Shown here piece after piece: positions 23,409-27,002 of a DNA stretch of 31,328 bases; the first letter of the stretch is position 1, and each line of letters opens with the position of its first letter. This DNA is from a virus, in the IMG/VR virus record IMGVR_UViG_3300017734_000044, positions 1 to 31,328 of that record. One strand, given 5' to 3'. The notes under the pieces were generated by a model. The model was not told the DNA's origin and did no database searches. It worked only from the letters and a program-made list of their open reading frames with translations. The translations under genes and the position numbers were made by a program.

Positions 23409-23929
23409 TAGATCACCTCCTTACAGAAGATTTCATCCTGTGGTATTTTTACAACATAACCGCCATCAAGCGCCCATTCATATAATCTGTCTCCGAGGAT
23501 TTCTTTTAACCTTGGCATATCATCATTAATAATTTTATTCCAATATGTTGGGGTTGTTGTGTATCTGATACCCGCAAGATCAACCTCGGTTCTATCAAAA
23601 CAAGTCCAACTATTTTTTGGAAATGTTTTAACTTCTTCCACTTCATCCCAACAAAAAAACCCGCCGAAGTAATATAATTTTTCTCCGTTGATTGTCTCCG
23701 CTTGGATGCTCTCAAGTTCGGCTAAGAATTCCTCATTTTCTTTTTGGTATTCTTTGCTCATGTCTTTTAATAAGCTTTTTTCATACTCAATAAAAGCATC
23801 TCTTGTTGCTTGGTTAAAGTAAGGGTTCGCCCATCCGTTCCAATATCTATTACTTGGGTCGTATGCGCCCTCAAAGGTTGGGAAATCCTCATAATCTGAG
23901 AATGTAAATTTTGCTTTAATAAGATTCAT
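23408..23929 (-). CDS. 173-residue acidic protein, largest of the operon, unknown
   Basis: MNLIKAKFTFSDYEDFPTFEGAYDPSNRYWNGWANPYFNQ, then a long helix ALLKDMSKEYQKENEEFLAELE, an aromatic FGGFFCWDEVEEVKTFPKNSWTCFDRT core and a charged end. Rich in aromatics (W, Y, F) and in acids, with three cysteines. The start ATG follows GAGGTGGCG and overlaps the upstream stop (TAATG). No family recognised. Being large and acidic in a block of small genes, it is a good candidate for a host-interaction protein. Confidence 0.6.
   Translation of the reverse strand: MNLIKAKFTFSDYEDFPTFEGAYDPSNRYWNGWANPYFNQATRDAFIEYEKSLLKDMSKEYQKENEEFLAELESIQAETINGEKLYYFGGFFCWDEVEEVKTFPKNSWTCFDRTEVDLAGIRYTTTPTYWNKIINDDMPRLKEILGDRLYEWALDGGYVVKIPQDEIFCKEVI
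23411..23423 (-). promoter_or_regulatory. Extended Shine-Dalgarno, 13-nt match to the 16S 3' end
   Basis: Minus-strand TAAGGAGGTGATC is a 13-nt complement of the 16S rRNA tail (GATCACCTCCTTA), ending TA before the ATG at 23408. It is the second copy of this element in the operon, 284 bp from the first, and again encodes KEVI at the end of the upstream protein. Confidence 0.75.
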
Positions 23930-24255
23930 TACGCCACCTCTTCAAGTTTATTGACATACTCACAAACAATCTCTTCACCTATGATGTAGGTATACATATT
24001 TACAACTCTTTCAGCATTACTAAAATCAGTTGATACTTCGCCAAAGTTAGATTGCTCATACTCTCTAATATGCTCTATAACATCAAAAACTTGATCACCT
24101 AACCATTGCTTAGCTTGGTAAGTGCCTATGATGTAATAGTCAGTATTGAAAGCATGGTGATGAAGATCATCTTTATTCTCTTCTATCCATTCCGCATCTT
24201 GATCATTAATGAAATCATCAAAATATTCTTTTATCTCTTCTCTTTTATAATCCAT
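23929..24255 (-). CDS. 108-residue very acidic protein, unknown
   Basis: MDYKREEIKEYFDDFINDQDAEWIEENKDDLHHHAFNTDYY then VFDVIEHIREYEQSNFGEVSTDF and YTYIIGEEIVCEYVNKLEEVA. About 30 of 108 residues are D/E, in helices, plus a triple-histidine cluster. The pattern of acidic helices suits a DNA mimic such as Ocr or ArdA, but no ArdA motif was seen. SD: minus-strand AAAGGAGAGTAAAAATGG. Start supported. The end EEVA is coded by the SD of the next gene. Confidence 0.6.
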   Translation of the reverse strand: MDYKREEIKEYFDDFINDQDAEWIEENKDDLHHHAFNTDYYIIGTYQAKQWLGDQVFDVIEHIREYEQSNFGEVSTDFSNAERVVNMYTYIIGEEIVCEYVNKLEEVA

Positions 24256-24288
24256 TTTTACTCTCCTTTGTTAAATGGGTTGCTTATA

Positions 24289-24332: not shown

Positions 24333-24599
24333 TTAGATCATGCTTTTATGGGGGTATTCAAAAATTAACCATTCATCGTGAGAAAATATTTTCTCATCTT
24401 CTAACATTTCTACAATATCAGATAATTCAATTTTAAATTTTGTTCTTGCTTCCGCTAATGTATAGCCTTGATATTTGCATTTATGAGATGCAATTTCTTT
24501 TCCTTGTTTGTTATCTATATAACCAAACATTGTAAATGTTCCATCTTGGTGTTTTTCAACACCGCTTGATAAGTATGCTTCTAAGTTCTTTGTTTTCAT
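24333..24599 (-). CDS. 88-residue protein, first gene of the minus-strand operon
   Basis: MKTKNLEAYLSSGVEKHQDGTFTMFGYIDNKQGKEIASHKC then KYQGYTLAEARTKFKIELSDIVEMLEDEKIFSHDEWLIFEYPHKSMI. An N-terminal beta sheet and a C-terminal acidic helix. Minus-strand AGGAGAGTAAAAAATG is a good SD. It is the gene nearest the candidate promoter 24633-24660. No family recognised; as the first early gene it is likely the first made. Confidence 0.55.
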   Translation of the reverse strand: MKTKNLEAYLSSGVEKHQDGTFTMFGYIDNKQGKEIASHKCKYQGYTLAEARTKFKIELSDIVEMLEDEKIFSHDEWLIFEYPHKSMI

Positions 24600-24632
24600 T
24601 TTTTACTCTCCTAAGTAATTTATATATCTCCT

Positions 24633-24774: not shown

Positions 24775-25227
24775 ATGGAACAAAAAACGCTTAAAAAGAG
24801 AGGGCGAAAGGCTTTAATTCTTACACAAGATCAAATTAATCAAGTTGAACATTTGGCAGCTCTGAACATGGGAGTCATGGATATTTGCCGATCTCTTGGC
24901 ATTTCTTGGAGTGCATTCGATAAGAACCGCAAAAAAAAACAAGAAATAAATGACGCGTTAGAGAGAGGAAAAGCAAAAGGATTAACTAGAGCAACTTCTA
25001 AACTTATGGAAAAAATAGAGGATGGCGAATTCCAAGCGATCCAGTTCTATCTCAAATCAGCCGACCGCGAGCGCTGGGCAGAAAAAGCTGAAATTTCCCA
25101 TACTTTAAATTTGAGCGAAATAATCAGCTCCGCCAACGCGCGCATAATCGAACACAAAGGCGAAGCGCTAGCGCACGCGCCCGAAGAGATCGACATAAAA
25201 CAATTAAACAAGGCTAAGAACTCATGA
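24775..25227 (+). CDS. Terminase small subunit
   Basis: 150 residues. N-terminal basic KRGRKALILTQDQINQVEHLAALNMGVMDICRSLGISWSAFDKNRKKKQE is a helix-turn-helix, followed by ALERGKAKGLTRATSKLMEK and GEFQAIQFYLKSADRERWAEK, the phrase typical of terminase small subunits (A...FYLK....W). It binds the packaging start site and recruits the large subunit. The ATG has only a poor SD, with the AT-rich leader from 24725. It is directly upstream of the terminase large subunit across a structured gap. Family-level confidence is good. Confidence 0.75.
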   Translation: MEQKTLKKRGRKALILTQDQINQVEHLAALNMGVMDICRSLGISWSAFDKNRKKKQEINDALERGKAKGLTRATSKLMEKIEDGEFQAIQFYLKSADRERWAEKAEISHTLNLSEIISSANARIIEHKGEALAHAPEEIDIKQLNKAKNS

Positions 25228-25276
25228 GAGCTTGCTGTAGGGATTTATTCTTCTCCCTTGTACATTCCTACACACC

Positions 25277-25327
25277 GAGCGCGCGGAAGCTCACAGCGCT
25301 ACTCTCCGCGCTTCTCACAGCGCGCTC
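25277..25327. repeat. Inverted repeat with nested direct repeats in the terminase gap
   Basis: GAGCGCGC (25277-25284) pairs with GCGCGCTC (25320-25327); within it GAAGC (25286-25290) can pair with GCTTC (25310-25314). The direct repeat CTCACAGCGC occurs twice, 24 bp apart. Such structure in an AT-rich genome stands out and would suit terminase binding. Confidence 0.7.
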
Positions 25328-25439
25328 ACTCAATTACAGTCCAGGCGCGCGCTAGGGTGAAAGTTAGTACCTACTATCGCTGTATGACCCCCCCTTGCGT
25401 TGAGGGCGCGGGGCAGTGTACATGGAACTCTTGCGATAA

Positions 25440-25469
25440 TTTTTTTTAATTTTTTTTTAAATTTTTTTT
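25440..25469 (+). other. Three phased T-tracts (predicted bent DNA) before terminase large subunit
   Basis: T8 (25440-25447), T9 (25450-25458) and T8 (25462-25469), with AA and AAA between. Centres are about 10.5 and 11.5 bp apart, near the helical repeat, so curvature is predicted. The last tract abuts the ATG, so there is no Shine-Dalgarno. Confidence 0.75.
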
Positions 25470-27002
25470 ATGAAATATAAAGCCGAAGACGAAAAGAGAT
25501 TGATGACAGAGATATGGTCAGTCAATGTAAAAGACGATCCATTAAACTTTGTTAAGTTTGCTTTCCCTTGGGGAATGAAAGACACCCCCCTCGAAGACTT
25601 TAAAGGCCCGCGTAAGTGGCAGGAAAAAATTTTACGAGAAATGACAATCCATATTGCTAGAAATGGCACTAGGGATTTACCAGAGATGTTTAGAATGGCT
25701 GTAGCTTCAGGTCGTGGTATTGGTAAATCTGCTTTGGTTGCATGGATTATTCTTTGGATGTTATCCACAAGACTAGGAGCTACCATCATAGTAACCGCTA
25801 ACACCGAGCAACAGCTTAGAAGTAGAACTTGGGCTGAACTTGGTAAATGGATGACTCTTGCAATTAACTCTCATTGGTTTCAAAAAACCGCAACCACAGT
25901 CAAACCAGCACCTTGGTTTCAAGAAGCGCTAGAGCGCGACCTAAAGATTGATACTGGTTATTACTACGCGCAGGCGCAACTATGGAGCGAGGAAAATCCA
26001 GATGCCTTTGCGGGTATTCACAGCTCCTACGGAGTTTGTTTAATCATGGATGAGGCATCAGGTATACCTTCGCCCATCTACAGCGTATCCGAGGGTTTCT
26101 TCTCTGAACCAACATCCAATCGTTACTGGTTTACTTTCTCCAACCCGCGCCGAAACACAGGCCCATTCTACGATTCCTTTAATAGCAAAAAGCGCTTTTG
26201 GCAGAATGTGCAAATCGACTCGCGCACAGTCGAAGGCACTGACCAAAAGCTCTTCCAATCGATGATCGAGCAGTATGGCGAAGATTCTACTGTCGCGCGT
26301 GTGGAGGTCATGGGTGAGTTTCCTAGCGCAGACGATGATACTGTCATACCGCTTGACTTAGTGCGCGGTGCGGTAGAACGCGATGTCACGCTCACCGCGA
26401 ATGAGCCAATCGTTTGGGGTTTGGATGTTGCTAGATTCGGTGGCGATAACAGTGCGCTGTGCGTGCGCCAGGGAAACACTGTCTTAGAAATTAAATCATT
26501 TGCCTCCATGGACTTGATGCAACTTTGTGGTGTGGTTAAAAATCGATTCGATGATTGTACTGTCATGGAACGACCCCAAGAAATATTAGTCGATGTGATT
26601 GGACTTGGTGCTGGAGTGGTTGATAGGTTGCGTGAGCAGAATTTACCAGTGCGCGGGGTGAATGTAGCAGAAGCTCCAAGTACCAAAAAGAACTATTTGA
26701 ACTTGCGTGCTGAGTTATGGTTTGCGATTAAGGATTGGCTGGCGCAGCGTGATTGCCGACTTCCTAATGATGATGAGCTTGTATCAGAATTAGCTGCGCC
26801 TCTTTATAAATATACTTCGACTGGAAAAATAAAGATAGAGTCAAAAGATGAAATGCGCAAACGCGGAATAAAATCTCCTGACAAAGCAGATGCACTTGCG
26901 TTGACCATGGCAAGTTCGGCTGCAAGTTTTAGTGGAAGCGAGAGTTATTTCGGTTATAATTTCAAAAAACCTTTAAAATCTCGAATCATTCGAGTGGGAT
27001 AG
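25470..27002 (+). CDS. Terminase large subunit (ATPase and nuclease)
   Basis: 510 residues. ATPase: Walker A GRGIGKS (81-87), Walker B CLIMDEA (190-196), coupling motif FTFSNP (221-226). Nuclease: D319 in WGLDVARFGGDNS, D375 in LVDVIGLGAGVVDRL and D471/D474 in SPDKADALALTMA. It packs DNA into the prohead and cuts concatemers. The ATG at 25470 has no SD, only T-tracts; the in-frame ATG at 25503 has a modest purine stretch (AAAGAG), so translation may begin there and lose 11 residues. Downstream is the portal. Function is certain. Confidence 0.93.
   Translation: MKYKAEDEKRLMTEIWSVNVKDDPLNFVKFAFPWGMKDTPLEDFKGPRKWQEKILREMTIHIARNGTRDLPEMFRMAVASGRGIGKSALVAWIILWMLSTRLGATIIVTANTEQQLRSRTWAELGKWMTLAINSHWFQKTATTVKPAPWFQEALERDLKIDTGYYYAQAQLWSEENPDAFAGIHSSYGVCLIMDEASGIPSPIYSVSEGFFSEPTSNRYWFTFSNPRRNTGPFYDSFNSKKRFWQNVQIDSRTVEGTDQKLFQSMIEQYGEDSTVARVEVMGEFPSADDDTVIPLDLVRGAVERDVTLTANEPIVWGLDVARFGGDNSALCVRQGNTVLEIKSFASMDLMQLCGVVKNRFDDCTVMERPQEILVDVIGLGAGVVDRLREQNLPVRGVNVAEAPSTKKNYLNLRAELWFAIKDWLAQRDCRLPNDDELVSELAAPLYKYTSTGKIKIESKDEMRKRGIKSPDKADALALTMASSAASFSGSESYFGYNFKKPLKSRIIRVG

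What the first reader, a model, noticed from the sequence alone, without database searches (positions are those of the whole stretch)
25228..25469. Candidate packaging site between terminase genes
The only long noncoding gap beside terminases has a GC-rich block in an AT-rich genome, a 51-bp inverted repeat (GAGCGCGC / GCGCGCTC), direct repeats CTCACAGCGC and phased T-tracts. Combination of palindrome, repeats and bent DNA is known for cos/pac regions (for example IHF bend at lambda cos).
Basis: partly seen in the sequence, partly recalled or inferred. Interest (0 to 1): 0.6.

Follow-up and report, generated by a model that had tools for sequence, protein, structure and literature searches.

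The report
Phage DNA-end site with RNA hairpins
The gap between the two DNA-packaging genes of this marine phage holds a sequence that, in a cultured relative, sits at the annotated physical end of the packaged DNA, and next to it a pair of conserved RNA-type hairpins that many uncultured marine phages share, that no Rfam family matches and whose job is unknown.

Summary
The features exist, but they belong to two modules. (1) The 3' core (25387 to about 25430: ACCCCCCC, G-rich, GGGGCAG, AT-rich) recurs 65-83 nt before TerL in the marine genomes read, and the C-run is in 207 of 212 complete gaps. It also occurs once per genome unit in the cultured Sinorhizobium phage phiM5 (TerL 38% identical), 78 nt before TerL; there the annotated 357-bp terminal repeat ends exactly 10 nt after GGGGCAG. 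This supports a packaging/cleavage site of the short-terminal-repeat kind, not lambda cos, and predicts a virion end near window 25426. (2) The palindrome is a stem of a two-hairpin element (25236-25327). Its stems change in compensated pairs, its wobble pairs are G-U and almost never A-C on the + strand, and its loops (CUCCC, ACUCUCC) are conserved, so it folds as + strand, most simply RNA. The direct repeats are incidental; the T-tracts are conserved but loosely phased. The RNA's role is open: transcript-linked processing of concatemers, anti-Shine-Dalgarno regulation of early genes, or a leader. Loop-target co-variation was not significant across the family (p=0.14). No virion ends, reads or transcripts could be examined.

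The parts
24775..25227 (+). terS, terminase small subunit; the element always follows it
   Evidence: PHROG 309, E 1e-13; element stays next to terS when genes are inserted before terL
25228..25469 (+). terS-terL gap, noncoding
   Evidence: 63-aa frame inside has no family match; gap length varies freely in relatives
25236..25272 (+). hairpin 1: arms TGTAGGGA 25236-25243 and TTCCTACA 25265-25272, loop with TTCTCCCTT (CTCCC at 25253-25257)
   Evidence: read from sequence; other class A members have a different stem, GCGC..GGGTA/TACCC..GCGC, around the same loop
   Evidence: all cells paired in 19 class A sequences with compensated changes; 237 Watson-Crick, 8 G-T, 0 A-C pairs over 18 sequences
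25387..25416 (+). packaging core: ACCCCCCC (25387-25394) to GGGGCAG (25410-25416)
   Evidence: unique in the window; same pattern unique in phiM5 at the terminal repeat end
25417..25436 (+). predicted right end of the terminal repeat, best guess between 25426 and 25427
   Evidence: position by analogy with phiM5, whose repeat ends 10 nt after GGGGCAG; not measured in this phage
25440..25469 (+). T-tracts directly before the TerL start codon, no Shine-Dalgarno
   Evidence: T-tracts of similar kind in most relatives
25470..27002 (+). terL, terminase large subunit
   Evidence: PHROG 2, E 9.5e-48; 38% identical to phiM5 TerL
24260..24266 (-). Shine-Dalgarno GGAGAGT of leftward gene 23929-24255, complementary to the hairpin 2 loop
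   Evidence: possible target, unproven
24605..24611 (-). Shine-Dalgarno GGAGAGT of leftward gene 24333-24599, complementary to the hairpin 2 loop
   Evidence: possible target, unproven

Best explanation
The gap is a composite packaging-terminus region. Its 3' core (C-run, GGGGCAG, AT-rich) marks where terminase cuts the replicated concatemer, and so sets the right end of a short direct terminal repeat about 43 nt upstream of TerL, near 25426. By analogy with phiM5 the left end of the repeat would lie a few hundred bases upstream, inside terS. Before the cut lies a two-hairpin element that folds as + strand single strand, most likely RNA. Shown here: a conserved core that matches phiM5's annotated genome end in place and sequence, and a conserved + strand secondary structure with conserved pyrimidine loops. 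Inferred: that this phage is cut at the same point, and that the hairpins are transcribed. Not resolved: what the hairpins do. My preferred link is that the transcript structure helps to pause polymerase or to bring in terminase at the junction, as T7 polymerase pausing does, but the evidence does not separate this from gene regulation.
For: phiM5 record: terminal repeat copies 1-357 and 43648-44005, right end 10 nt after GGGGCAG in the terS-terL gap; the gene before that end matches a TerS family. Pattern [AG]C6+..GGGGCAG once per genome unit in the window and in phiM5, 0.01 and 0.04 expected per shuffled genome. C-run 65-83 nt before TerL in marine genomes, 78 in phiM5; near copy in phage C72C1. 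Core kept where hairpins are missing. Element stays with terS. Covariation and G-T bias.
Against: The GGGGCAG pattern was written down after seeing both sequences, and only 15 of 131 distinct marine gaps have it exactly. Closer TerL relatives MW202483, MW202898 and DSL-LC05 have no C- or G-run upstream of TerL. How the phiM5 ends were determined was not available. No contig-end hotspot. An RNA structure is not needed for a DNA cleavage site.
Confidence: 0.55

Rival explanations
1. The hairpins are a trans-acting small RNA, released from the terS 3' region. Its CUCCC and ACUCUCC loops bind Shine-Dalgarno sequences and shut off early leftward genes late in infection, while terS and terL, which have no Shine-Dalgarno, escape. 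The core may still be a packaging site.
For: Hairpin 2 loop pairs 8 nt with GGAGAGTA of the first two leftward genes; these are its two best targets in 3 of 3 class A genomes although the genes behind differ; 6 of 2000 shuffled loops do as well in the window. Leftward genes have stronger Shine-Dalgarnos than rightward ones. Conserved loops on variable stems are described for anti-Shine-Dalgarno sRNAs of rhizobia (PMC3927594).
Against: Own loops do not fit own leaders better than foreign ones across seven classes (p=0.14). In classes B and D the best targets are other genes. No promoter or terminator above chance. Any CU-rich loop fits Shine-Dalgarnos somewhat.
Confidence: 0.2
2. The whole gap is a leader or attenuator of the late operon: hairpins, C-run/G-run stem and U-rich tract set transcription or translation of TerL and the genes behind it. 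The likeness to the phiM5 end is coincidental.
For: RNA sense is that of terL; TerL has no Shine-Dalgarno and starts directly behind U-rich sequence.
Against: In more than ten loci a gene lies between element and terL, and the element stays with terS. Some gaps lack the hairpins. The phiM5 end would be unexplained.
Confidence: 0.15
3. A lambda-type cos site: cohesive-end nicks beside repeated TerS sites and an IHF-bent segment.
For: Location beside terS, GC-rich palindrome, T-tracts.
Against: Repeats not conserved; T-tract spacing loose; the stem evolves as a paired single strand, not as a fixed DNA site; contigs that end in the gap end at different points and are not in excess, 4 of 44, p=0.22; the relative has a 357-bp repeat.
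Confidence: 0.07

Closest known systems
Sinorhizobium phage phiM5 terminal repeat end between TerS and TerL (MF074189.1)
   Same: Gene order leftward early genes, TerS, gap, TerL, portal; A-C-run..GGGGCAG core at the same distance from TerL; annotated genome end 10 nt after GGGGCAG
   Different: No CUCCC/CUCUCC hairpins noticed; GC-rich genome; TerL only 38% identical
phiEco32/SU10 terminal repeats (193 bp)
   Same: Curated portal family SU10_portal hits the window portal; short terminal repeats without a phage RNA polymerase, mechanism called unknown (PMC4281155)
   Different: Larger phages; no homologous core was compared
T7 concatemer junction
   Different: T7 uses its own polymerase; no two-hairpin RNA is part of it as far as I know (own knowledge)
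Anti-Shine-Dalgarno sRNAs of Rhizobiales (SmelA075, SmelA099)
   Same: Several hairpins with conserved CU-rich loops on variable stems (PMC3927594)
   Different: Loops there are CCUCCUCCC; here CUCCC and ACUCUCC, in a phage, with no independent promoter found
Salmonella phage epsilon15 terminase region
   Same: TerL 36% identical
   Different: terS and terL overlap, no gap

Membership tests
Short direct-terminal-repeat packaging terminus | Virion DNA ends, with a repeat of hundreds of bases, at this place | not testable with these tools
   No reads or virion DNA; the window is a linear record without end overlap
Short direct-terminal-repeat packaging terminus | Homologous sequence at the annotated end of a related phage | tested here: met
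   phiM5
Short direct-terminal-repeat packaging terminus | Genomes assemble as circles rather than ending at the site | tested here: inconclusive
   Three relatives are closed with 84-127-bp end overlaps far from the gap; headful packaging would look the same
Lambda-type cos | Conserved repeated TerS-binding sites and bend site | tested here: not met
   Direct repeats not conserved; T-tract spacing loose
Lambda-type cos | Cohesive ends | not testable with these tools
   No virion ends; no shared contig end point
Conserved structured RNA | Compensated changes in stems beyond shuffled controls | tested here: met
   Class B: 6 pairs with double changes, shuffles 1.8, 0/500. Class A alone: 5 cells with double changes (0/500), 2 such pairs (74/500)
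Conserved structured RNA | Wobble pairs point to one strand | tested here: met
   8 G-T against 0 A-C; 49 against 2 cells in the class B outer stem (counted)
Known Rfam family | Match to a family model | tested here: not met
   None in the window at gathering scores, none in eight relatives up to E=1
Anti-Shine-Dalgarno sRNA | Target complementarity that co-varies with the loops | tested here: inconclusive
   Strong in class A, p=0.14 across classes
Anti-Shine-Dalgarno sRNA | Own promoter and terminator | tested here: inconclusive
   Nothing beyond chance in a sigma-70 consensus scan; processing from the mRNA remains possible

The most novel reading that the evidence does not exclude
The hairpins are part of the packaging machinery: nascent RNA folded at the concatemer junction, with conserved CUCCC/CUCUCC loops, pauses RNA polymerase or brings in terminase, so that cutting and repeat duplication are coupled to transcription in phages without a T7-type polymerase.
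Probability: 0.15. Interest if true: 0.85.

Novelty: new variant of a known kind. Interest (0 to 1): 0.58.

Why it matters
It gives a concrete predicted genome end for a family of uncultured marine phages and ties it to the phiM5 lineage. It describes a structured RNA, with no Rfam match, at a likely packaging junction. How short terminal repeats are processed in phages without their own RNA polymerase is described as unknown (PMC4281155); a conserved RNA at the junction would make that testable. If the hairpins act in trans instead, they may be a late off-switch for early phage genes.

Tried and rejected
Coding: the 63-aa TTG frame at 25258-25449 has no family match, and gaps of relatives differ by non-multiples of three and by homopolymer steps. 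Known RNA family: none. Sigma-70 promoter or intrinsic terminator in the gap: not above chance. Contig-end hotspot as a sign of cos: not found. Second copies in the same genomes: none (one weak hit is the opposite strand of the same site, one E=0.2 hit in L328 lies upstream in the terS end). Loop-target co-variation across classes: not significant. Host: one Pelagibacter-labelled MAG contig, probably co-binned phage. DNA search of cultured phages with the terS-gap-terL stretch: nothing. HTVC106P, a pelagiphage with a related portal, has an unrelated TerL. A phi29-like motor RNA was considered; no evidence either way.

Full report
Setting. The window is a linear 31,328-base virus record. TerS (24775-25227, PHROG 309) and TerL (25470-27002, PHROG 2) are followed by an SU10-type portal. 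Upstream of TerS lies a leftward block of small genes. The 242-nt gap shows no sign of coding.

Observation. All features named exist, with one correction: the palindrome has 8-bp arms that span 51 nt. Taken alone it is only mildly unusual for so GC-rich a stretch. I therefore relied on relatives.

Relatives. TerL searches and DNA patterns found over 200 loci of a marine family; the TerLs compared are 85% or more identical to this one. Gaps directly between terS and terL are 86-268 nt and differ greatly in sequence. Of 212 complete gaps, 207 keep a run of six or more C. The motif AACTANTSAACTAAAWTTTTT was found in 108 stretches of IMG/VR, and every new locus examined has terS and/or terL. In more than ten loci a gene sits between the element and TerL, a methyltransferase-like one where I read it; the element stays with terS.

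Two modules. The 5' module is a pair of hairpins. In class A (the window) hairpin 1 has TTCTCCCTT in its loop and hairpin 2 has TACTCTCC. In class B one long stem encloses a CTCCC hairpin and an unpaired CTCTC stretch. Other classes have different stems with the same loop motifs. Stems are replaced while loops are kept. In 31 class B sequences 95.7% of cells pair, 6 pairs change on both sides (1.8 in shuffles, 0/500), and sliding the partner strand by one destroys pairing. In 19 class A sequences all cells pair and five cells show double changes (0/500 shuffles); the number of such pairs, two, is not significant on its own (74/500). Departures from Watson-Crick are G-T on the + strand: 8 against 0 A-C in hairpin 2, and 49 against 2 cells in the class B outer stem (counted; cells, not events). 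So the + strand is what folds: most simply an RNA with the sense of terL, although single-stranded + DNA is not excluded. A covariance model from class A finds elements of other classes that were not in its training set (L055, L096, L022: E 4e-5 to 6e-4; L268: 0.03). Some gaps lack this module (L053, L029, L033, L020).

The 3' module (C-run, G-rich stretch, AT-rich segment, T-tracts) is present also where the hairpins are missing, so it is the more general part.

Link to packaging. A portal search led to Sinorhizobium phage phiM5. Its record annotates a 357-bp direct terminal repeat, and both copies are in the sequence. The last gene before its right end matches a terminase small subunit family, although BLAST finds no likeness to the window's TerS. 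The record ends 10 nt after ..ACCCCCCCCC..GGGGGCAG; in the left copy TerL starts 36 nt after that point. The window has ACCCCCCC..GGGGCAG at 25387-25416. The C-run lies 78 nt before TerL in phiM5, 82 in the window and 65-83 in other marine genomes. The pattern is unique in each genome unit, with 0.04 and 0.01 expected per shuffled genome, though it was written down after seeing both. Phage C72C1 has a near copy at -86. This places the predicted end of this phage's repeat near 25426.

Limits. Three TerL relatives closer than phiM5 (MW202483, MW202898, DSL-LC05) have no C- or G-run upstream of TerL, so the site is not tied to this TerL family as a whole. The method behind the phiM5 ends was not available. 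Closed contigs and the lack of a contig-end hotspot fit terminal repeats or headful packaging and are only weak evidence against cohesive ends.

What the RNA does. The loops resemble anti-Shine-Dalgarno sequences. In three of three class A genomes the two best targets of the hairpin 2 loop are the first two leftward genes, with an 8-nt match in the window; the coding sequences differ between genomes while the leader is kept. Leftward genes have stronger Shine-Dalgarnos than rightward genes; terS and terL have none (genomes are related, so the pooled p value overstates). This would suit a late RNA that silences early genes. But across seven classes own loops do not fit own leaders significantly better than foreign ones (p=0.14). 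An alternative that unites both modules is that transcript structure at the junction assists terminase, as T7 polymerase pausing at the concatemer junction does (PMC3276506); for SU10 and phiEco32, phages with 193-bp repeats and no polymerase of their own, the mechanism is called unknown (PMC4281155). That is a hypothesis only.

Verdict. The palindrome belongs to a conserved structured element, probably RNA, whose role is open.

Noticed in passing
L162, terS-terL gap: The CTCCC hairpin is present in two tandem copies, so the hairpin behaves as a module.
   Followed up: no
L044, L070, L076, L135, L143, L159, L171, L181, L274: Genes (methyltransferase-like where read) are inserted exactly at the junction between the element and TerL, sometimes leaving a remnant of the TerL start (ATGAAATAA).
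   Followed up: partly
window 24605-24620 and equivalents in class A and B loci: The first leftward genes differ in coding sequence but share a leader whose Shine-Dalgarno sits in a small inverted repeat (TTACT-TAGGAG-AGTAA, ACTT-TGGAG-AAGT).
   Followed up: partly
L066-type gaps against window 25353-25469: Class A and class B 5' modules are joined to the same kind of 3' module (GATAGTTAGTAC..ACTATCG, C-run, GGGGCAG), which suggests recombination within the gap.
   Followed up: no
window 25100-25227: The 3' end of terS is unusually GC-rich for this genome and its C-terminal tail is highly variable among relatives.
   Followed up: no
L348: A GTDB MAG labelled Candidatus Pelagibacter contains a contig with TerL 99% identical to the window's; probably a co-binned phage, a weak hint of a SAR11 host.
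   Followed up: no
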